Translations under genes and position numbers: made by a program | Shown: in pieces, positions 22,034 through 35,876 of the stretch | Layout of the letters: each line of letters begins with the position of its first letter | How positions within the stretch are numbered: the first letter of the stretch is position 1 | Notes under the pieces: generated by a model | Told to the model about the DNA's origin: nothing | Database searches by the model: none | Seen by the model: only the letters and a program-made list of their open reading frames with translations | DNA from: Lyophyllum atratum | Lineage: Eukaryota; Basidiomycota; Agaricomycetes; Agaricales; Lyophyllaceae | Direction: 5' to 3' | Assembly (NCBI GenBank): GCA_014905825.1 | Contig: JACGCN010000029.1 | Location: 558,001 to 622,000 of the forward strand | DNA length: 64,000 bases

Positions 22034-22538
22034 GGTTGGTGATTCTGGTGATGGTGTGGTGGATGTTCGATGACAAGGTGGGGTGAAAGGAAAGAGATGG
22101 GCTGTAAGGAAAGAGATGGGCTGACAGGGTTTATAAACGGGCATTACGATTCGGACTGGGGTGCTGACTTACACGGTTGTACGTGCAGAGACTTAATATG
22201 ACGACGATTCTGTACTGGTCTATCAGTTCATGAGAGAATGTGTGAGGAGCTGACATCGTGGTGAGGGAGGGGACGGGACGAGTAGATATTAGATCCCGCG
22301 CGCTGGGTGTGTTGGCCAGATTCAAAGCCTACCCTGGAATGGGGCCGAACGATCATGGGATATCTTGGACGCTGGAACCTGGTATAGAGCATTTAAAGGC
22401 ATTGGCTAAGAGTCTATGTAGAGGACGGGAGTCAGGTTGATCAGTATGGTGAGTGAGAGAAAAATGATCATACTTATGCTGCAGGGGATCCGGCGAAGGT
22501 CTTAGTAGGACACGAATGAATGTTGGATCGCAGTTGAA
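22034..22538. other. Host sequence left of the 13.3-kb element
   Basis: Upstream region of the 19628-22033 gene. No other gene. Ends in TTGAA (22534-22538), the candidate target-site copy of the element. Confidence 0.4.
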
Positions 22539-22571
22539 CCCCAGTGAAAAGTCGGTCGGGCCGAATTGAGC
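22539..22571 (+). repeat. Left terminal inverted repeat of the 13.3-kb element
   Basis: 33 bp beginning CCCCAGTGAAAAGTCGGTCG; one mismatch to the reverse complement of 35839-35871. Similarity outside CCCC (AA on both sides) makes the exact end uncertain by two bases. Confidence 0.8.
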
Positions 22572-23284
22572 GCAAACGAGCGAAACGGGCCCTGCCGTTA
22601 ACTGTCTGAAATAGCTCGTTTCAACTCCGGACGGCTCAGTATTATAGCCATCTATCCAGCCATATTGAGCAGCTTCAAGCTATATAGGTCTCTCCACATC
22701 GCTTCATTCTTGCTCGATATCTTCCAATTTGATTCAATTACAATTTCGTTCAATTTTGTTCAATCAAAATATATTGACTCTGATAAATACATGGGCAGGA
22801 GTATACAACTAAAATACGCATACATACGGACGGACCCTCAGCGCATCCGCCGTCCGTCACCCAATAAGTCCGCTACCCGCCATTTATCGCGATCGCGCTA
22901 GCCTGCCTGAATATGTACCACTTATGTACCCTTATCAACAAAACATGATCAGATGGCACGAAAGCAAAGCAAAACATCGACGTACGACGAATACGGCGGC
23001 TTGAACGCCCTAAATGCTTGGCTTGAAGTCCTACTGTTGCTTCTCGGTCAGAGTGTGACCGATGGGATCGGCGTTATGCACACACCAAAATGCCTTCGTG
23101 GTTCGCGAATGCTACCGAATTTTGATGGGCGTGCGGTTGCTGCTTGATCGCGATCAGGCGGGAGGAGCCACGTTCCGAGATCTATTTATAGATTGAGGTT
23201 ATACCTTTTTATTTGGGTGGAAAAGTTTTGCGAATTTTTGAAATCTATTTATAGATGGACGCAAAAAAGCTTAATTTTTAGAAG
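22572..23284. other. Left subterminal region of the element, no supported gene
   Basis: A/T-rich in places, with ATCTATTTATAGAT-like repeats (about 23175-23265). No gene seen. Confidence 0.4.
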
Positions 23285-23335
23285 CATGGTCACGTGAATG
23301 CATGTGACTTCCTCGTCTGGACCATCGTTTACATA

Positions 23336-24714
23336 CAGTCGTTTGCAAATGAAACTGCCGATCGGATTTCTTGAAAACCTATTTGCACATGACCGTACAC
23401 GTGAATTTGTGACCAAATGTCACTCCGGGTCATAGCCGGCTCATCGCACTGTTGACCATCGTACAGGCCAATAGCTTGCTCGTTTCACCTACCATGGCGC
23501 CCCATACGTCCACCGAACTCCGAAAGCGCATGGTCTACTGGAAGGATGAGCTTCAATTATCTACTGCTGAGATTGCTAAACTTGCGAGCTGTAGTGAGCG
23601 GACTGTACGTGAAGTTCTTCGCCTACATAGAGAACACGGCATGGTCCACAATCCGTTCGCGCAACCTCGAGGTCGCAGAAGGTCTCTAGAAACTGCAGAT
23701 ATGAATTTTATATTGTCTATCTTGGATGCCAACCCAGCACTATATCTCGATGAAATCCAGTCCAGGCTTTCTGATGACCGAAACACTGATGTATCGATTG
23801 CGACACTCTGCCGTGCCATCCGCAGTCTCGCACTTACACGGAAGCGCATCTCCAAGCATGCACTGGAGAGGAATGAGCTTCTCCGGGCTACATGGCAAGC
23901 TGCATATGGTGACATCCCAGCAGATTATTGCATCTGGTTGGACGAATCGGCTGTCGATGGTCGCACCAATCAACGTGACCACGGATGGGCCCCTGTGGGT
24001 GCTGGGTGCGTTCGCCGTGACACATTTATCCGTGGCCAAAGGTTCTCTATGCTCCCCGCCCTATCACGCGATGGGATTATTGCCTTGGACATCTTCGAAG
24101 GTTCCGTCACCAAAGAGCGTTTCCTCGGTTTTCTCAGAGATCAAATTGTATGTCTGCTTCTCTTCTCTTACTATGAACCAGACATGAAATCATTGAACAG
24201 GCTCCAAAATTGAATCCCTTTCCTGGGCCCCGCAGCGTAGTCATTCTCGATAACTGTACCATACATCATGATGAGGAAGTTCGCAGTCTTATTATCGATG
24301 ATTGTGGTGCGTGGTCAAATATTCGTGGACATGACCGACTTACTGATTAGTGCATAACATAAAGGTGCAAAACTCATATATCTACCACCTTATTCCCCCG
24401 ACTTCAACCCTATCGAGCAAGCGTTCTCTTCGATCAAGGCATGGCTCCGGAGACATGAGGCGGAGGCATTGAACCCTGATGCGCGGGCGTGGCTCATTCA
24501 TCAAGCCACTCATACAGTATCTCGGGAGAAAGCAGAAGCATGGATTCTTAATTGTGGTTATCATTTCCAAGACTAGATGTATGTACTACTTGTGTTCCGA
24601 GCCGTCGATAGATAGTTTCGTTCCCTGTCACGATGTGACAGGCACAGTCACGTGTAAACAGGACCCGGCAACTTTCGTTCAACTTGTGATGGCAGTTTCA
24701 TTTGCAAACGACTG
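23336..24714 (+). mobile_element. Tc1/mariner-type transposon, 1379 bp, apparently intact
   Basis: Perfect 24-bp terminal inverted repeats at 23336-23359 (CAGTCGTTTGCAAATGAAAC...) and 24691-24714, flanked by TA (23334-23335 and 24715-24716). The flanks match a copy without the insert at 25909-26036, which confirms both ends and the TA duplication. Encodes one complete transposase. Perfect TIRs and an open transposase suggest recent insertion. Confidence 0.95.
23494..24576 (+). CDS. Tc1/mariner (IS630-like) DDE transposase
   Basis: Predicted 323 aa from three exons: 23494-24147, 24201-24306 and 24365-24576. An in-frame upstream ATG at 23452 would add 14 residues; 23494 fits the start of the helix-turn-helix better. 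The N-terminal DNA-binding region (STAEIAKLASCSERTVREVL) is a paired-type HTH that should bind the TIRs. The catalytic core has WLDESAVDGR (first Asp), VVILDNCTIHHDEE (second Asp) and LPPYSPDFNPIEQAFSSIK (Glu); I count 35 residues between the second Asp and the Glu. It cuts and rejoins at TA. No frameshift or stop was found. Confidence 0.93.
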
Positions 24715-24795
24715 TAATGCTCGTCTTTTCCCACCCATTCATGAATCGTTTGAGTCCGAGTCCCAGAAAGTGCACCCCATCTCTCTTTTTCCTTA

Positions 24796-25908
24796 ACAAC
24801 TTTTAATTGTTGGGCTCTAAACGCTCTCTTGTCCGTCACGGGGACAGGACTCGAGCCAGCGACGATAGGAGCTATCTAAGGGACATAGTGGAATGAAATG
24901 TAATGTAAGAGTCTGTGAATATGCAGGGAGTGGTGGGTGGAATCGAAATTTGCGCGTCCGGGGACGGTGATTTAGCACGTGCTTCGAGGAAGTGCGTGAG
25001 ACGTGAGACTGGTAAATAAATTGTAAGCTACTGACCTGCGGGGAAGTGCGTGAGACAAGGGATTGTCTACGCCCCTCGCAGGTTTATAAGTAGGGTTCAG
25101 AACGGAATAAAGTAATTGATAAAATAACTAGGGGACGAATAGGATCGTACTTTTGGAGGCCCCGGGAAGCTCCCGAGAAAGCAAGCCCTCAAAATAGCGG
25201 AATTCTGGGCAAAAAATTGCCCAACTCCTGCCCAAAAATAGCGGATTTGAGGTCCAGAAACCGGAACCCTTGCCCACAAAATAGCGGATTTCAGACCCCG
25301 GGAGTAGAAAATTTCGAAATATCTCGTCAAATGTATCTGAATTCATCGTCTATTCAACACTTGTACGAGTGGCACAGGACTCCAACCCAGAACTGGAGGA
25401 AGCCGAACAGAAAAAGACTCGACAACTTCGATGATTGACGACAGCGAAAGAGATTGTCAAATTGAACACATGCTGAAGCCTGCAAGCCACTTGTCCACTT
25501 CGCCCCTGCCTTACTTACCTGAGCCAGAAGAACATAACGGATTCACAAGAGGGCCTACTGAAATCTGATTTATGGTCTTACTGTATGTGATCTTGATGAT
25601 AATTACACATTGATTCTTGGTCTATGGTGGATGGTGGCGAGCTTGGGCGAGCCGTTGAAGAAAAAATAAAATAAAAACAAGAAAATTTCCTTTTTTGGAC
25701 ATTATGTGCAAGGTTCTATCCGGTTTCGCGGATTTGAGGCCTTAATCTTCGCGGATTTGAGGCCGGATTCTGGGGTTTTGCCCGGGCTTGCTTTCTCAGG
25801 AGCTTCCCGGGTCCTACTTTTGGTGGCGGGATGTTGAGCCAGGGCTCGCAGAGTTCGGCGCACGAACATTGACCCGCTGTAGACACCCCACAACAGTACA
25901 GAGATCAG
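24796..25908. other. No supported gene; motif-rich repeat sequence
   Basis: Holds direct repeats of GAAGTGCGTGAGAC (about 24990 and 25044) and the GCGGATTTGAGG cluster listed separately. Motif-free frames only. Confidence 0.4.
25161..25811. repeat. 28-bp inverted repeats with internal GCGGATTTGAGG motifs
   Basis: 25161-25188 (CCCGGGAAGCTCCCGAGAAA...) pairs with 25784-25811 with one mismatch. Between them, variants of GCGGATTT(GAGG) occur at least four times (near 25232, 25283, 25730 and 25752). This could be a small non-autonomous element; no clear target duplication was found. Confidence 0.65.
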
Positions 25909-26036
25909 CATGGTCACGTGAATGCATGTGACTTCCTCATCTGACCATCGTTTACGTAATGCTTATCTTTTCCCACCCATTCATGAATCCATTGAGTCCG
26001 AGTCCCAGAGAGTGCGCCCCATCTCTTTTTCCTTTA
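25909..26036 (+). repeat. Empty-site copy of the mariner target repeat
   Basis: Reads straight through GTTTACGTAATGC where the other copy has the mariner at TA, and is otherwise nearly identical over ~125 bp. Confidence 0.92.
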
Positions 26037-26316
26037 CATCGCTTGCTCATCTGGATCCAACTATGCCCACTCACTGCCTCAACCATCTGATATATGTTTG
26101 TGTTCATATCCTTCATCAGTCATAACATATCTCCCTGTCTTATATAGTTCCGTATGTTATTAAGGACATACCATCAATCTGGTTCTCAACAGGGCGGGTG
26201 TGGTGTTTGGGCCGAGTTGGGGCTGAGGCAATGGGCATCAATTCAGTTTGTGGGTAACCCCGCAGGTGCGTCATTGTGTCCATTTTTTTCCCGCCAAATT
26301 GGGGGTTTATTAATTA

Positions 26317-27230
26317 TTGTTCAATAGCGCGACACATCCGAAGCGGGAGCGTTCACCTCAGCTTCACTACGTCTTCTGGGACGTGAACCAAATTCCCGAA
26401 GCCATATCAGCACTAGGAAACTGTCCGTTCTACGCCAAAAAGTGGGTCGTGTTCCCCAAGGAGGTCACTGCCATGGTCATGTGTACAGTTGACGGAGAAG
26501 TGCAGTCATACCCCACGGTCGAAACGATACATAAAGATGACATCTGCCACTTGTCTTGGCACCCTTACACAGTCACGATCCCACCTTTATTGGTGCACAC
26601 GTGAAGTCACTGAGGCTGTAGTGAAGGATGTACACGGGCGCCAGCGTATTTGGTGTGGAGATATTCCTCATGGAGGATGGTAGGTCCATCGCATGTCTGT
26701 ATGCATACCTGCGCTTAGGTTGCATACACAATAGTGAAGTTGCGCCTCATTGACACAACTACGGGCACTACATCATTGAGGCAATATGTGAGACATCACA
26801 ATACGAGGACCACCTCCACGCGATTCTAAACCACTTGGATTCACCACCCTCAAAAACCCATCAACGGACGACGGTGACGTTAAGCCTGATTGGGCACGCT
26901 TCCTCCATGGACCGGATAATCAACTCCAGCAAAGTGAATCTCACCATCCCCAGCACCTCCACCCATCTCTACGGGAAGTTGGAATGCCGCAAAGGCTGCA
27001 AGATGGGCCACATCACGATTATAGCTGATCCTGATTCCAAGCACCGCAGACGAGATCAACCTATATGCACCCCCTGCCCCGACGCTCAGGTCCAGATTCC
27101 CAGACCCCCATCCCTCGTCGGAATAATCAAGGGCTCTGACTCCAATCTGCCCGTCATGCTCCCTGCTGCGTGCATCCTCAACCACTTCCACATCCCCTAC
27201 ACGCTCACCAAGTTGACTCATTGACCGCAA
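26317..27230 (+). pseudogene. ADE2: Decayed internal fragment of phosphoribosylaminoimidazole carboxylase (ADE2-like)
   Basis: Translated pieces in order: an ATP-grasp segment FYAKKWVVFPKEVTAMVMC with VQSYPTVETIHKDDICH; after a frameshift near 26600, ASVFGVEIFLMEDGR; then SEVAPH-stop-HNYGHYIIEA and ETSQYEDHLHAILNHL; then THLYGKLECRKGCKMGHITI; then the PurE start LVGIIKGSDSNLPVMLPAA and IPYTLTKL. This is the order of fungal ADE2 (PurK-like domain then PurE-like domain), the sixth step of purine synthesis. The N-terminal ATP-grasp part and most of PurE are missing, and an in-frame stop and frameshifts are present. In PurE, MGSDSD is changed to KGSDSN. It cannot be functional; it lies inside the 13.3-kb element, so it is probably a captured host fragment. 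Confidence 0.85.
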
Positions 27231-27610
27231 ACCTAGTCTCTCCTAGACAGACACATCAGTCGTACCTCCTTTCTGTAGTCTGTTGGTTATCTGATGTGCT
27301 CGTCGGGAGGGTAACCTTATTATATAATCATTAGCACATGATTAGAAATGCCTGCACAAACAAGCAATTAAGAGCGCGTCGCGTCCTCATCATGTCCTCG
27401 TCGCATCACCGAAAAGCATGCAATTGACGTGGTTTTGAGTAACTCATATGATTTCCTATTCGATAGAAATAGTGTGAAGAAAGTACCTCTATACATAGGC
27501 TGCATTAACAGTCAAGGAGCATTCAATTTGCTTCCGTCTTGCTAAGCATAATACATATTGGATGATCGCTCAATTTCCAACAGAGAAAATTTCTTGCCTG
27601 ACGAACAGCA
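27231..27610. other. Spacer upstream of the DUF6589 gene
   Basis: A/T-rich, no gene; probable promoter region of the DUF6589 gene. Confidence 0.4.
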
Positions 27611-30600
27611 ATGTCTACACCCAACAGGCTCCCCTATGTGTTCAAACATTCACCATTGTCAACGCCGATGAGGACGGCTGAGCCTGCTGGTGACGAAGAA
27701 CTCGGTTCAAGTACAGCACAACCGATGTCGCTGCCCCGCCTCCGCGCTCCCAAACGCACGAAATGGGACAAGGCGGACAGGATCTTGGAAATGATCCAGA
27801 AGGATTTCGGCTCCCTCGGAGACTTCCTAGTGCACTTGTTTCACAATTCACTGCGAGGTAATGATCCCAGGTCTGCTCGACATGTCAGCATGGTTTCGGC
27901 GTTCTTGCAAGGCAGTTCGCATGCTCATATGGGAGAGATCATCGAGCTTCTCTATCATCACCGCCAGAGCAACCCACGGAAAGGATCCTCAGAACTTAGT
28001 CACGCATACTCTCCCACTATTCCACTTGACGAAATTCGACATGCACGGCCTTGTCTATCGGCATGGGCGGCACATCTTGTAGGGGAAAAAGTACATAACG
28101 AGGTTGGACTGTTGACCCAGAATGACCCTGAAGATCCAGAGGATCGAACGCAGCTACGAGCACAAGAAGTAGCCGCTCGCAGGCAACCGTTCCTCAAGTT
28201 ACCTGGGAAGACCTTGGTAAATTCAGCATTCCGACATTGGCAAAGAAGTATAAGAAGCGGGCACCTCTTACCTCATATCTCACGGAGTCCATGGCTGCGC
28301 CTCGAAAGAATGGAATGGTTATCGTTCGACAGCGGCGACCCCATACCGCAGTGAGTAATAGAATTCTGTCAATGGAGATCAGAAGTGATAGTTGCCCTAG
28401 GTCATGGTAGGAGCCATCAGCGCCTTCGTCCTTGCCAGAAACAGATTTGCAAATTACCTTGCTCTGAATATCGGGGTCTGGCAGTTCGCGTGCAAATCCC
28501 ATATCGACACGAAAAGGATCCTCAGCCGATTTGGTTTTACGGTCCACGACAGCACTGTCCGGGAGTGTTTAAACTCGCTCTCGGATTCCAGTCTTGAGGC
28601 GCTCCGAAGATCTGTGGCTGAAGGAATCGCAAATGGGGAGATGACTTGGAAATTTGTCCTTGATAACGTGCAGCAGTATGAGGTCCATCGGGAGTCTAGG
28701 ATAGGACGTCAGCCTAACCTCAAAGTCGGCACTGCTGCAACCGCAATCAAACTAGACGACTGCGCACCAGGGGCCTTCAACCTTGCAGATCATCTGGAAC
28801 GTGTCATGAAGATGGAGAGGAAACACATGACGACCCACTCACTCTATGAGAGTATAGACTGGAGGCACCAAAGCGAAGTACAGGCACTCCACTGGGTCCG
28901 TGTACTTGTTGGATTCATCGAAGCTCTTGAAGCCTATCGTAAACCAGTTTCGGCACTATTCCGTTCCGACAGCATAGCAAAACACTGCATGCGGAAGGGC
29001 CGCAAGACAGTCATTCAGCCACTCGGGACAAACGGGGAGAAGGAAGTCGAAACGCAAGGAATGAAGAACGCAATTCTAGACTTTGAGAAGCAGATGGGTC
29101 TTGATGAAAAGGCGCTCGAAGGAAAGATTGTCATGCCCGGTGGTGATGGTGCCTCATACGCTGCGATCCTTAGGATAAAGAAGTACATGGCCGCACATCA
29201 GAGCGACTACAAATCCTTCCGCGGGCGTGTCAGTGTTCCTGAACTATGGCATACACGGGCTACAAACCTGAATGCGATGGCGGAAAATCACTATGGACCA
29301 ATAGCCTCTCCCGACCCCTCTTCTTTGTCAAAGAGTGCAGCAGCTGTCAACGTCAAGCGTCCTTCAAACCTCAAAAAATGCGACTTTTACCCAACAGCAC
29401 GTTCGTTCTTTTTTTTGAAGCACGTGTCCTAGATTGCTGGAGGTCAGTACGTATGATTCTATCGACGACAGTCACTTACGAGCTGCATTCAGGGTTTACT
29501 TCGATGTTGAAGACCTGACAAAACACTTCGAGAATCTTCAAGCGGAAGATAAGCTACCAACGCTTGAGAAGCTCCGTAATATTGGACGAATTCTGGTACG
29601 GCGATACACGTCACAAGAAGCGTACGAGCAAGCATTATCCTCCAAGGAATGGGACATGGCAACGGATGACATGAAGGTACCAAAAGGAACACCATGGACT
29701 GCTCCAGTTCAGTCCAAGAAAAAGGCAAGGAACGGAGACCCTACGCAAGATGTAGGACAGGAGTTGAATGAGACCGAAGTTGGTGATCAGGACTTGGGAA
29801 TGTCAGAGAGCAACCTGACCGACAACCAAAACACGACGTCAGCAGAGGCCAATAAGCCACCAGACGATGGAAAAACGACGGTCCACGTTGAAGCTAAAGG
29901 TTTTGATGGGGATCGTGTATTAGCAAATGCCATCCTATTCCTACAGGATGCAGGATGGTGGGTCGAGGCTGCCTATGCAGTTCCTGAAGGTGATATTGGG
30001 CGAGTCTACCAGATAATCAAGGTACATTAGCTCTTTCATATGCGAGGACTTGTCATGTACTCACCTTTATACAGATTTGGATTTTCTCCTTCACGGGGAC
30101 TGCTAACCGTAACTACTCGAGCTGGCTCCTGGAACTTTACTGCCTATTTCGATACGAGTCTTCAAAGGACCTATCGGATGCAATTCTAAATAACTGGCTG
30201 GTTAATATCACAGGGGAGTTAGGAAAATGGATAGAGGCCGACCTTCTGCAAGAACACTATAACCGATGGTTGGAGGATATGGCAGGGAAGATGGGCGGCG
30301 AATTTGATGACAAGTTCTATCGACACACCCTATCTCCGAACGTCCAACATTTCCTCCGGCTGAAAGAAGAAATTGAGTCAGCCTTCGACATCAGGCCACG
30401 GACCAAGGCTCATGGTTCTGCTCACCTTCGTGACGAGTTCCAGAGTCTCCTTCGGATGCATAAGGAGGACGAGCTGCATCGCTTCCGACCTGGCCGCAGT
30501 ATGGGCCATGCAGCGGCCAATACATTCAACCTCGGGTATGCAAGACTGGACGAAGGGCGAATGGAAAGCTTTATAGAAAATAGCCTTCCATATGCAAGGA

Positions 30601-30890
30601 TTGTGGCGGATATGAAATCAACCACCCGCACTGCCAATACTTCCGGGAATGTGCAAAGGGAGGAGCTGGAGCCGGGTCCTAGGGAAGACATTAGCGATGG
30701 AGAGGAGGACGATGCTGTTGACCAGCATCGTCCAATGCCAGGTCAGCAAATATTCGTTGACCAGGACAGTGGTAGTATGGTAATCAACGAGGGTCCCGGG
30801 AGCGAGACGGACAGCAGTGAGGAGGAAGAGGAGGGGGAGGAGGGTAATATGGGACATGCGAGTAGTGGTCGCTCAAGTGATAGCGAGTAG
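27611..30890 (+). CDS. DUF6589 protein, candidate transposase, with one homopolymer frameshift
   Basis: Exons inferred: 27611-28102, 28183-28350, 28401-29442, 29493-30021 and 30075-30890; phases agree if one base is added to the T8 run at 29409-29416. That gives about 1015 aa. Blocks I know from DUF6589 proteins occur in order: TWEDLGKF, RNRFANYLALNIGVWQFACK, FVLDNVQQYEVHR, LKVGTAATAIKLDDCAPGAF, GRKTVIQPLGTNGEKEVETQ, GGDGASYA, ELWHTRATNLNAMAENHYGP, CDFYPTARS, EARVLDCWR, FLQDAGWWVEAAYAVPEGD, WLVNITGELGKWIEADLLQE and HRFRPGRSMG. Asp308 (LDN), Asp469 (GDG) and Glu804 (QEHYN) could form an RNase H-like catalytic set; that is inference. The C-terminus is acidic. Without the missing base the protein would end after the T run. 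Confidence 0.85.
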
Positions 30891-30912
30891 ATAGAAAGTA
30901 GAGGAAATATTA

Positions 30913-33244
30913 TTACTGGGCATTTTCATCGGTAATCTGTGTGCGACTGGATCGACTTGAGCGAGTACGGTAAGGCTGCCTAAAGGATTGTAGAACCTCG
31001 GCGGAACTTTCGAGAGCACGTGGGGCACGGCGTGGACGTTTCGACATGACTCCGTTAGTTTCGTCTTGAAGGGGTGGTCGTTTTGCCGGAGGTGTGCAGT
31101 CGACATGACCAGTGGGTGACGAGCTAGCAGGTGCCGAGTGTCCCATGTCCACTGCCAGGTCTGGAGCGTGGTCATCCTCTGCATCGTCGATAGTTGCCGC
31201 CTTATTGGCGTCGCGCTTCGCTTTTGCACGCAACCTGTTCCTTTCATTCTGAGCTAGTCGGGCCTCGCTACGCTGCGTTTGGAATTTCACTTGTAGCTCC
31301 AATACCAGCTGAAAGAGGAGCGGGCCACAGCGCAAAAAGTATCGCCACGAGGGAATAAGGATCTCAATATCATGGAGAGTCGTTATTGTCATGAGGTTGC
31401 TGGTGAGTTTGGTGGCGAGAGGGACAGGGAAGTATGCAGCTCGGGGAGTACGCCCAGTGAGGTCAAAAGCCTTCTCCAGCTTCCTCGTGGCGTCACGGAA
31501 CTGTTCGAAGGCTTTAGTGACTTCTTCACGCATCTTGGAAGTCAAGGCTGATTCTGGCTTGCCTGAGCCTTGGATAGGGGCGGCGCTTGGAGGTGGACCC
31601 CCGTGGGTGAGTCGAAAAGGGACGAGAGGAGGAAGGTCGGGGTCAAATGGTGATGGGGGAAAATCGAGAGTGATGCCTGAACGTTTAAGACAGTAACTGC
31701 AGAAAACTTGACGGCGGGCGGTGATGCAGTCAAGCTTCGTCTGCTCCAGCAGTGGGTTCTGATACAAAACGTTACGTAGTGCAGTTAGGCAACCTTCCTC
31801 GGGTTCGAGAAGAAGTCTAGCCTTCGAGACGTCCATTTGCGCGGGTTTCGCAGGTGTCTTCTTTGTCCGCTTTGGCTTTGAGGGTGCTTTCGAGGACGAC
31901 TTGGGGTTGGAAGGTAGAGGCTTCATTTCAGATGGAAAATGCGCTGAGAAATCATGGTTTAAAATGAGACGAGTGAAAGGGAAAGAATGTGCACACCTCG
32001 CATATACTTCTCAGCAGCTTCTATGACCTTTGGTTGAGCGAGGACGATACCACGAGCCAGTGAGACACCATCACGGCCAACACGACCCTCTTGCTGGACG
32101 AGTTGGTTCATGACCCAGTTGGATACAGTCGAGAAGGGGCTTCACGTTGATGCCTTGAGCAAATGCAACCGTCGCGATGACCACCTGACAGCATGGGTCA
32201 TCACGGATAAGCCGTATCGTTTCCTCATTTTCGTCAGGCCAGCACATGGCGTGGTAGAGGCGCACTCGTGTCAGTTTCTCGAGGCCGGGGGGCAGAAGAC
32301 TAAATAGGTAGACGGCAACTCGCCAACAAAGTTCAATGGTGTCGCAATAAATGACGGTCTTGCGACCGGATGCAAGGAACTCGAGAAGATCGGGAAAGGT
32401 GTTGCCTCCGAGGGTGTGGGTAAGAGTCTGGAGAATGAAATGGATGTTTGGGCGTTCGTTGGTGCGTCGAAGGTGGTGAAAATGGCCGGGGACGAAGCCC
32501 ATGGTGTCACAGATGGTGGAGGTAGGTAAACCAGGCTCAATTGTCGCTGAGAGGCCGAAAACAGATATGTTCGGAGGACAGCGCCCACGTGCGAACATGC
32601 CAATGAGACGGAAAGCTGTCCGGAAATCTGCACCCCACTCGTATATCAGATGGATCTCGTCGACGCAGAGAAAAGCGATGTTCTTCCTCCACAGCTCGGA
32701 ATTTGTGATGTACTCCCAATCCTTGGCCGTGAGATGTTCTGGATCTATGCATATGAGCGGCCACTTCCCCTCCGCAACTTCCTTCCATACCTGACGTCCC
32801 GTTTTACGTGCCTCTGTCAGGATCTCAGAGGAGTAAGCGATTGCAAGAACGCCGAGTTTCTCGATTTCGAAAACCTGCCAACGAAAAATCAGTTGGATTT
32901 ATTGAGGGGTAGGTAAAACTTACGATGTTCGCAGCCAATCCCTTCGTTGGAGTGATAACTATGCCCATAGGAAACGTTCGACGTGGTAAATTAGAATAGT
33001 ACAGAGGCCGGTCCTTTATCTCCTGCAATACGACGAGAGGAACTGCAAATATTGCTGATTTTCCATCCCCAGTTGCTGTGCTGACTAAAACATCTTCGCC
33101 GTCGAGAATTCGGCTGACTAGATCCAGTTGCCAATCCCGAAGGCCTGCTGTCCATGCTGGGATAAGGTCCTTGACAATTCGCTGGATAGTGTCCTTTCCA
33201 GTGCTTGATTGCCAGCGAAGGAGGACGGACTGGGATGGCACCAT
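30913..33244 (-). CDS. RecQ-like superfamily II DNA helicase of the element, with a frameshift near motif VI
   Basis: Exons on the minus strand: 33244-32924, 32874-31997 and 31943-30913. The N-terminal helicase domain has RDWQLDLVSRILDGEDVLVS and Walker A TATGDGKS, then ICIDPEHL, the DEIH box (CVDEIHLIYEWGADF) and FGLSATIEP (motif III). The second domain has GRKTVIYCDTIELCW, VVIATVAFAQGINV and QQEGRVGRDG (motif VI). Between LLDCIQLG and VMNQLVQQEG the frame shifts (about 32105-32120) and a few expected residues seem missing, so motif VI is out of frame. The third exon carries a Cys-rich module (CLTALRN, DCITARRQVFCSYC) like the zinc region of RecQ-type proteins, then a long basic, Pro-rich tail. 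Probably unwinds DNA during transposition or its repair. It is convergent with the DUF6589 gene; their stops are 22 bp apart. Confidence 0.85.
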
Positions 33245-33606
33245 ATCAACGGGTCAAAGCCGTGTCTCGCATCGAGCCCGAAAACGTTGTATAGGAGTTG
33301 GGTACAGTGCAAGGATAAGCTCACAAGCATTGAAGCAAGTCTCACGCGTACACGCTTCGTTGATCGCTTCACGTGATGCTCTGCCCCTTCCGAAAAAGGA
33401 GATGCTTTGTAATAACCCGACCCTCCCAACATGGGGTCGCAATAGGCGAAGGACTACCGCAAACCATATTTAGTCACAAACTGACATCGCACCTCCGAAT
33501 CAAAGTCGTTTGTTCTCCTGTATGGCATTAGAAAAAGTGTATGGTAAGTTACGAAGCACAGGTAGCAGAGAGTACTTTATGATAGTTAATATAGTAGCTA
33601 GGTTAG

Positions 33607-34640
33607 CTATGGATACGCTTCTGCAGCTTTAAGAATGTCCGTGAATCCCTGGTTCTTGTTCCACCCAAGAAGATTGGTGAATGCACGGGACGTCAAGTGT
33701 TCATAATGTTTGCAAAGGAACTTCAATGCCAGCGCGACATCCCCGTTAGGTTTCTTTGACAGTTGTCGAACCAGATCCACCACCTTGTTTCGTCGGATGG
33801 CCTCGCTCTTTAAAGCCTTTACGTTGCCTTTCCACTTTGTCCCCAGCCCTCGAGGAGCTCTCAAACCAAAAGGTGGCCATTGAGGCCCTTCACATGTTCA
33901 GCCCAGATATCCGTGAGCTTCTTCATGGTTGCATACTCGTAAACGGGCAGCCAGCACTCGCTTTCTGGGATCCACTTCCACTGGTGTTTCAAAAGGCGCT
34001 CCTCAGTGTACCTGACTATCAGACGATGCCACACTACAGCCTCCTTCGGTTTCAATAGCGGTGTGGGAATCGGACCATGCACCGGGGGTGCTGGAGCAGC
34101 GGACACAACAGATGTCTAGAGGGAAGCGGGTGGATAAGAGGAAAGGGATAGATCAAGTCTGGTGAGATGAACACAGGAGAAACGCTCGTTGCTTCCGCAG
34201 CATGAGAAGACGGAGGTGAAGGGGAAGATGTACCAATGGCCGAAGGGGAGAGGACAGGGATGGGTACGTCCGTGGGTATTTCTAGCGCCCGCGGTGATGC
34301 AGCCTGCACCAACAGAAGGGGTGTGATGCAAGGAGGGGTTAGTACCGCTGCAACAAGCAGATGTTCAGTAAATAGCGGAAATTTCAATTGATGAGCACTC
34401 ACTTGCGCTGTGTTGGCTTCTGCGATGTGATGTCATGTTTGAAGTGATAAGCTCTGGTCCTCCTGCTGTTTGAGGGCAATCCTGGCAAGTATTCCCTGTA
34501 GGGAATTAGCCATCTGCTTGGGGAGATTCTGAAAGGCATGGCGAGCCTCTTCCTCTGCACAGTCACTACGAGAGGTTGAGTCTTCTGCAAATTTATGGAA
34601 TACTTCTGTGTTGAAAGGCTCATAACAGAAAATAGACAAT
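33607..34640 (-). CDS. GCR1_C-like DNA-binding domain protein, probably frameshifted
   Basis: The C-terminal part reads WKWIPESECWLPVYEYATMK, KLTDIWAEHVKGLNGHL, then in another frame LRAPRGLGTKWKGNVKALKS and KVVDLVRQLSKKPNGDVALA. This pattern (W.P.YEY..V..LTDIW.E...G..G, then GTKW) is that of the GCR1-like DNA-binding domain that also occurs in some fungal mobile-element proteins. The switch of frame falls near 33862, at CTTTTGGTTTGAG. Upstream pieces (34052-34402, Pro/Ser-rich, and a helical stretch FHKFAEDSTSRSDCAEEEAR near 34560-34610) look like earlier exons. Start and exon limits are not resolved. Likely role: recognition of element ends or regulation. Confidence 0.5.
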
Positions 34641-35838
34641 ATCAGCATTCTAAATCAGACAATCTGCTGCTTTGGCTTACAATGTCTGCAACAACTTGAA
34701 GCAAGACTGTCGAGAGGGGCACCAGTCGCACGGGAAGCACAGTATAGGTAAGGGTCGATTCTGCTGCAAATGACAGTGGGTCCCCGCTAGTGAGGCACAA
34801 TTACCAGCGGTGACGTGGCCCAGACGCAAATCCACTGTGAATTCGGAAGGGTTGCTAATGCACAAAGGTAAAATTATGTCCGAGTGGAGGGACAGATCAT
34901 GCACTTGAAGCAGGAAGGAAGATTGAGGACTTGATGCTATAAAGTACTGGTACTATCTTCGCTGTTGAGAATCCTTGGAGGATTTCTCGGTTTTGCTTGG
35001 AACTTCCTCAACTGCGTCTTGAACTGTTCACATCCGCGTGGATTCCAGTTGAGGAGGAATTGGGATCCTTGGTGGTGACAAATAATGTGGTGGAAGACTA
35101 CTTGATCCGAGTCCTAAGTACAGTAGCGATTTGAGGTGCGAGATAGAGTAGGAACAGAGAAAACAGAGATGAAGTTTTGACGACGCGTGGTAAGCGCCGT
35201 TTATGTAAATTACCACGATTGCGATCCTTGGTCTGGGCCCTCACCTAATTGAGCCAGGTCTCAGAGACTCCTCCGAATAGGCGTGTATTGGGTTGGAGAC
35301 CTTCGGCTAGCTACGCGGGGGTCTCCAGCAGGGTCTCCAGCGCAGTGTGGAGACCCAGAATACACTCTATGTACCAAGCTTACAGAAACCCCCGGATTTA
35401 GATCTCGGCCACGCCATGCTCGCAATGGCCCATACTCGCACGTAAGGTAAGAGCGATGCTGATGGCGACTACATGCGGGCAGCGGCGGACGGTCGGAGTG
35501 GAGAGTTTGGAGCGACGGGATTCCGAGAACACGGTGGTTGGGGGGAAAGAATGGAGAAGTCGTTTTGCCGCCTGCGCCAGACTTATGTATGAATTCGCGC
35601 CAAGTTACGCTCTGAAATAGAAGCAAACAACGGCTTTGAGGAGATATTCCATTGAGCTCAAAATGAGATGACCATGACGATAAAACGTCTGAGCTGGACG
35701 GATTTCACATGTCCATTTGACGAAGTCATCTCGAACTCACGACAATGGCTGAACTTGACCACAAACCATTGGATGGGTCAGAACAAATGATTGCTTTGGG
35801 TAGATTTGGCTCGATTGACTACCGTTTGGCTTGAATAA
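34641..35838. other. Right subterminal region of the element, no firm gene
   Basis: A short GGTCTCCAGC repeat occurs around 35325-35355. The minus-strand frame 35261-35626 has no recognised motif and is probably chance. Confidence 0.35.
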
Positions 35839-35871
35839 GCTCAATTCCGCCCGACCGACTTTTCACTGGGG
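35839..35871 (-). repeat. Right terminal inverted repeat of the 13.3-kb element
   Basis: Ends CCGACTTTTCACTGGGG on the plus strand; 32 of 33 positions match the left repeat in reverse complement. TTGAA follows at 35872-35876. Confidence 0.8.
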
Positions 35872-35876
35872 TTGAA

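What the first reader, a model, noticed from the sequence alone, without database searches (positions are those of the whole stretch)
22534..35876. 13.3-kb transposon-like element pairing a DUF6589 protein with a RecQ-like helicase and a GCR1_C-like protein
Seen: 33-bp inverted ends (32/33 matches, starting CCCCAGTGAAAAGTCGG) 13.3 kb apart, with TTGAA directly outside both. Between them lie a DUF6589 protein, an SF2 helicase convergent with it, and a GCR1-like DNA-binding module. DUF6589 has LDN, GDG and QEHYN blocks at positions suitable for an RNase H-like DDE core. Inference: DUF6589 is the transposase and the helicase assists it. Helicase-carrying Academ-type elements are the nearest known concept, but membership is unproven.
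Basis: partly seen in the sequence, partly recalled or inferred. Interest (0 to 1): 0.88.

Follow-up and report, generated by a model that had tools for sequence, protein, structure and literature searches.

The report
Helicase-carrying transposon nested in mushroom DNA
A mushroom genome carries a 6.2-kb jumping gene made of an uncharacterised cut-and-paste enzyme and a RecQ-type helicase; the 13-kb element first reported is really several mobile elements inserted into one another, and short remnants of the jumping gene's left end hint at an unusual way of leaving its old sites.

Summary
The inverted ends at 22,539 and 35,871 are real but belong to another element: a 1.0-1.1-kb non-autonomous transposon with 5-bp target duplications, found elsewhere and split here by later insertions. 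DUF6589 and the helicase form their own 6,223-bp transposon at 27,234-33,456, with ends TAGTC...GACTA and a perfect 9-bp duplication (CCGCAAACC); a related repeat on another contig lacks it and holds a single CCGTAAACC. Three further two-gene elements in this genome (Lyophyllum atratum) have the same termini and perfect 9-bp duplications. DUF6589 lies within 10 kb of this helicase at 16 of 21 loci, and both share contigs in other mushrooms. AlphaFold models show an RNase H-like DDE core nearest Hermes and P-element transposases. A 9-bp duplication plus SF2 helicase fits published descriptions of AcademH; kinship to Academ transposases could not be tested. The GCR1-like stretch lies outside the element and was not confirmed. 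Unexpected: short copies consisting of the left end only (44-53 bp), flanked by 9-bp duplications in 19 of 26 short copies read. I read them as excision scars from a long one-sided stagger; that is inferred.

The parts
27234..33456 (.). The true element: 6,223-bp DNA transposon with DUF6589 and helicase genes, ends TAGTC...GACTA
   Evidence: Homology to the C78 copy ends at both edges; empty site on C24
27225..27233 (+). 9-bp target duplication, left copy CCGCAAACC
33457..33465 (+). 9-bp target duplication, right copy CCGCAAACC
27234..27277 (+). Left-terminal 44 bp, found alone elsewhere in the genome between 9-bp duplications; an internal GTCTG follows at 27278
27611..30890 (+). DUF6589 gene (proposed DDE transposase), about four exons; 720 combinations of candidate introns leave an open frame, so exact splice sites are not fixed
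30913..33253 (-). RecQ-type SF2 helicase gene, convergent with DUF6589; motif VI is in another frame than motifs I and II (read by eye), so this copy may be damaged or have a further intron
22539..23173 (.). Left part of the outer non-autonomous transposon, with the 33-bp end 22539-22571
35439..35871 (.). Right part of the outer non-autonomous transposon, with the 33-bp end 35839-35871
22534..22538 (+). 5-bp target duplication TTGAA of the outer element, left copy (right copy 35872-35876)
23174..35438 (.). 12.27-kb insert in the outer element, between CACGT repeats; an older repeat carrying an ADE2-like fragment, itself hit by later insertions
23336..24714 (+). Tc1-like (DDE_3) transposon inserted at TA, absent from the C24 relative
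25157..25814 (.). 0.66-kb inverted-repeat insert between TACTTTTGG copies, absent from the C24 relative
   Evidence: coordinates counted by hand

Best explanation
A 6,223-bp cut-and-paste DNA transposon (27,234-33,456) encodes a DUF6589 DDE transposase and a convergent RecQ-type helicase. Shown: boundaries, 9-bp duplication, empty site, further copies with the same ends, gene pairing. Strongly inferred: DUF6589 is the catalytic enzyme (predicted RNase H-like fold, conserved D, D and E). Inferred: the helicase helps to open or repair the ends; the class is AcademH-like. Inferred with less confidence (about 0.4): excision cuts the two strands of the left end 44-53 nt apart, beside an internal GTCTG, so that the donor keeps a short left-end scar between the duplications while the element regains its full left end by gap filling.
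Confidence: 0.85

Rival explanations
1. One 13.3-kb element bounded by the 33-bp ends with 5-bp duplications, as first read, with DUF6589 as its transposase; the 1-kb copies would be deletion products.
For: The two 33-bp ends face each other and have TTGAA on both sides.
Against: The four short copies compared in full share one junction although they range from 82-91% to 98% identity to the window; the pair has its own ends, 9-bp duplications and an empty site inside; no other DUF6589 locus coincides with these ends.
Confidence: 0.03
2. The element is real, but DUF6589 belongs to a superfamily separate from Academ, which has gained a helicase on its own, as KolobokH has.
For: KolobokH shows that a RecQ helicase has joined another superfamily in fungi (PMC9587614). 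No Academ protein could be compared here. The closest folds are Hermes and the P element.
Against: Duplication length, helicase and occurrence in Basidiomycota all fit published statements on AcademH (PMC10045372, PMC10799480, PMC6416283).
Confidence: 0.3
3. DUF6589 and the helicase are passengers of a transposon moved by another enzyme.
For: Non-autonomous copies are common, and no activity has been measured.
Against: They are the only coding content recognised in the resolved elements, are paired across species, and DUF6589 has a transposase-like fold and conserved acidic residues.
Confidence: 0.05
4. The 44-53-bp left-end units are not scars of staggered excision: they are excisions that used the internal GTCTG as a false left end, abortive one-ended insertions, or true micro-transposons.
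For: In one family the internal motif reads TAGTCTG, a copy of the terminal TAGTCTC; 9-bp duplications by themselves mark insertion events.
Against: No listed copy begins at the internal site, as a false end with reinsertion would predict; 44 bp is very short for pairing two ends (inference); the unit has no inverted copy of the terminal motif at its right side.
Confidence: 0.5

Closest known systems
AcademH (Academ lineage with helicase)
   Same: 9-bp duplication (9 or 10 bp stated in PMC10045372, passage), DDE-type enzyme, SF2 helicase, occurrence in Basidiomycota (PMC10799480, passage), recQ domains in fungal Academ copies (PMC6416283, passage)
   Different: Kinship of DUF6589 to described Academ transposases not tested; the AcademH paper itself was not available; short left-end units are not mentioned in the passages seen
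KolobokH
   Same: RecQ helicase beside a DDE transposase, reported only from fungi (PMC9587614, passage)
   Different: Kolobok uses TTAA targets (recalled); here the duplications are 9 bp and not TTAA
Drosophila P element
   Different: Different duplication length (8 bp, recalled), no helicase of its own, stagger at both ends
Hermes (hAT)
   Same: Highest structural Z (11.5 and 11.1); RNase H-like core with helical insertion
   Different: No hAT Pfam domain in DUF6589 proteins scanned; 9 bp rather than the usual 8 bp
Helitron
   Same: Transposon with a helicase
   Different: No target duplication and an HUH nuclease define Helitrons (recalled); here 9-bp duplications and no such domain in the Pfam scans

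Membership tests
AcademH | 9- or 10-bp target duplications (PMC10045372) | tested here: met
   Perfect 9 bp at window, C78, C97 and C79; C73/C116 lack the right terminus and C57 gave none
AcademH | SF2 helicase encoded by the element | tested here: met
   Helicase lies inside the edges in the window, C78, C97 and C79; RecQ profile match E 6.8e-35
AcademH | DDD/E transposase | tested here: met
   Predicted RNase H-like fold and conserved D, D, E; prediction only
AcademH | Transposase homologous to described Academ transposases | not testable with these tools
   Academ sequences and the defining paper are not held
AcademX | 3- or 4-bp duplications (PMC10045372) and a nuclease in place of the helicase | tested here: not met
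   9-bp duplications
Kolobok / KolobokH | TTAA target duplication (recalled) | tested here: not met
   24 listed 9-bp duplications are varied and none is TTAA-based
MuDR | MULE transposase domain in Pfam | tested here: not met
   P0001, P0010 and P0065 hit DUF6589 and no MULE family
hAT or P superfamily | Superfamily-specific Pfam domain | tested here: not met
   None in the scans of the window exons, P0001, P0010 and P0065; fold resemblance only
Helitron | No target duplication (recalled) | tested here: not met
   9-bp duplications

The most novel reading that the evidence does not exclude
DUF6589 elements move by a cut-and-paste reaction with an extremely long, one-sided stagger: at the left end the two strands are cut 44-53 nt apart, the inner cut being set by an internal GTCTG, and the RecQ-type helicase is needed to open or process that stretch. 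Each excision leaves the left 44-53 bp between intact 9-bp duplications as a permanent mark, so the genome keeps a readable log of past jumps.
Probability: 0.38. Interest if true: 0.78.

Novelty: new variant of a known kind. Interest (0 to 1): 0.6.

Why it matters
It gives a likely function to a Pfam family of unknown function that recurs in mushroom genomes, explains a set of fungal genes named RecQ helicase as parts of transposons, and corrects the limits of the element. If the short units are excision scars, the long-open question of what a helicase does for a cut-and-paste transposon becomes directly testable, because scar length and position can be read out.

Tried and rejected
A single 13.3-kb element: rejected by the copies of the outer ends and the inner empty site. 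GCR1-like stretch as part of the element: it lies outside the junction, and two frames gave no GCR1_C hit. The frame at 26754-27221 is a PurK_C/AIRC (ADE2-like) fragment of the surrounding repeat. An allelic contig without the outer element: the search with the right flank found only a 74-81% relative on C57. A duplication for the divergent-arrangement element: none at C57. The blind end scan put another pair (10-bp duplication, 5-bp inverted end) above the true one in the window, and at C79 the true pair was the tenth row behind a local inverted duplication; at C78 and C97 the true pair came first. Homology edges and the empty site decide, not the scan. Footprints of the form 9 bp-TA-9 bp: in 0.36 Mb held, only one match, inside a tandem repeat, so no power. 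Hairpin in the short unit: z -0.3 for the 44-bp unit, -2.8 for one 53-bp unit. PDB by sequence for DUF6589: none at E 1. Remote DUF6589 search: 10 proteins, all DUF6589, none with an informative name. Literature: searches listed no paper, as far as titles and abstract starts show, on left-end scars of helicase-bearing transposons; the library lacks most subscription papers, so this does not establish novelty.

Papers: passages only were seen of PMC10799480, PMC10045372, PMC8290104, PMC12730594, PMC9587614, PMC9674265, PMC6416283, PMC10294476, PMC7776569, PMC3985635 and PMC12210899. The AcademH paper was not seen; it is known here through other papers and recall.

Full report
What was checked. 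The 33-bp inverted ends and the flanking TTGAA are in the sequence as described. DUF6589 and a convergent helicase gene lie between them. The window is part of contig C74 of a 64.8-Mb genome. P0001, annotated in Lyophyllum atratum, lies on a contig of 608,708 bases, the length of C79, and matches its frame 100%; P0010 likewise fits C97.

The outer ends belong to another element. Five other places read at both ends carry these termini 1,026-1,067 bp apart, each with its own 5-bp duplication (CTGAG, CTCAG, TTGAT, TTGAA, TTGAC); with the window, 6 of 6. In the four that match the window throughout (C1, C35, C87, C98) the sequence runs straight from the counterpart of 23173 to that of 35439; the fifth (C70) matches at its ends only. 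The C98 copy is 98% identical to the window on both sides; the others are 83-85% on the left and 82-91% on the right. The junction word occurs once in these copies (CACGT, CATGT in C1, TACGT in C98) and twice in the window (CACGT). So 12.27 kb was inserted there; deletion products would need one identical deletion in old and young copies. Of 21 DUF6589 loci (grouped by hand from the 40 exon-level rows) only the window's coincides with hits of these ends (40 rows each).

The true element. Comparison with C78 gives edges at 27234 and 33456. Directly outside lie CCGCAAACC on both sides in the window and ATATACACT at C78. A scan for duplication plus inverted end found TGCGCGTCT at C97:2442609-2448331 as best row and, at C79:404013-409840, GCATTGTGG as tenth row behind a local inverted duplication. 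In the window the scan put a chance pair first, so the scan alone would not have decided. The empty site does: a relative of the surrounding repeat on C24 (94% identical) runs through the site with a single CCGTAAACC and without the 6,223 bp; the same comparison shows that the Tc1-like insert and a 0.66-kb insert are also absent there. Of the six distinct loci whose flanks I read, four show the 9-bp duplication; C73 and its identical copy C116 have the left end but lack the last bases of the right one, and at C57 no duplication was found.

The gene pair. A core helicase exon lies within 10 kb of 16 of 21 DUF6589 loci (15 within 2.2 kb), and 16 of 20 helicase loci have DUF6589 nearby; random placement gives about 0.7% per locus (from the rows and one row). 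Left out of that count are ten further places that match only within the first hundred or so residues of the helicase and have no DUF6589; eight lie within 5 kb of left-end hits or 81 and look like non-autonomous copies. Two arrangements occur: convergent as in the window, and divergent (C57 at 326 kb, C75 twice, C13, C64, C76). Five DUF6589 loci (C87, C20, C68, C130, C71) show no helicase at this sensitivity. In the protein database 65 relatives were listed, 64 bearing PF20231; those with organism names are, by recall, all Agaricomycetes. Distances of the 15 pairs correlate (r 0.72, 0 of 5000 permutations); shared host descent may contribute. The helicase profile matches RecQ best among solved structures. 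In the window copy the QQEGRVGRD-like motif VI is in another frame than motifs I and II (by eye, compare), so this copy may not work.

Short left-end units. A search with the first 147 bp scored 40 of 56 candidates: all rows start at base 1 or 3; 9 cover 99 bp or more and 31 only 38-56 bp. Of the longer ones six besides the loci above were read; five have both ends and 9-bp duplications at 571-854 bp, one with a mismatch. Of the 31 short ones 19 were read: in 13 the sequence stops after 44 or 45 bp and a copy of the left flanking 9 bp follows, 10 perfect and 3 with one mismatch; 6 show no clear duplication, one of which (L094) runs on past the internal motif. L103/L105, L090/L100 and L091/L098 have the same or nearly the same flanks, so this is about 11 of 16 distinct sites. 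A second, diverged family (C79/C97 type) gave 34 rows, 22 short; 7 were read and 6 have the duplication after 50-53 bp, 5 perfect and one with a mismatch, two of the 6 (L108/L109) having the same flanks. In the first family the break lies just before an internal GTCTG (GTCTA in one subtype), in the second at or up to three bases before it. No row begins at the internal site. Twenty-four duplications of short units and longer copies together lean to G at the first and C at the last position (11 and 14 of 24).

Reading of the short units. Loss of everything from the internal GTCTG to the right terminus, with both duplications kept, looks like an excision product. The P element is a precedent, with a 17-nt staggered cleavage at each end (PMC7776569, passage), and is among the closest folds. 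A one-sided stagger of 44-53 nt would explain the uniform length, the full left end of moved copies and the absence of shortened elements. A false internal end, abortive insertion or a true micro-transposon are not excluded.

Comparison with known families. PMC10045372 states 9 or 10 bp for AcademH and 3 or 4 bp for AcademX; PMC6416283 reports DEAD/DEAH and recQ domains in fungal Academ copies; PMC10799480 reports AcademH in Basidiomycota, Ascomycota and Mucoromycota. These fit. KolobokH also carries a RecQ helicase in fungi (PMC9587614), but Kolobok uses TTAA (recalled). No held paper contains the term DUF6589. I call the element AcademH-like, membership likely but not shown.

Verdict. The finding points at a real and interesting object whose limits were misdrawn. 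The element is probably a member of a known lineage, with an enzyme family not named as its transposase in the papers searched here; the short left-end units are the most novel part.

Noticed in passing
window 26330-27233: ADE2-like (PurK_C, E 4.4e-11) gene fragment within a repeat that has 94% and 89% copies on C24 and C141 and four 73-74% relatives; a captured or duplicated host gene piece.
   Followed up: partly
   Followed up: partly
window 25148-25823: 0.66-kb insert with inverted ends and TACTTTTGG on both sides, a second small element with a 9-bp duplication; class not determined.
   Followed up: partly
window 35385-35448: tRNA-like (SINE-like) head sequence at the right edge of the 12.27-kb insert, also found beside the C35 copy of the outer element.
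   Followed up: no
G000 C75:658232-670430 and C57:322619-328728: Nearly identical DUF6589-helicase copies in divergent arrangement, two of them head to head on C75; ends and duplications not resolved.
   Followed up: partly
G000 C79:401927-409693: Two nearly identical helicase copies in inverted orientation on either side of one DUF6589 gene.
   Followed up: no
G000 C24:492298-499657 and C63:134310-159133: Facing end hits of the outer family 7.4 kb and 24.8 kb apart; either larger members that might encode its transposase, or copies with inserts.
   Followed up: no
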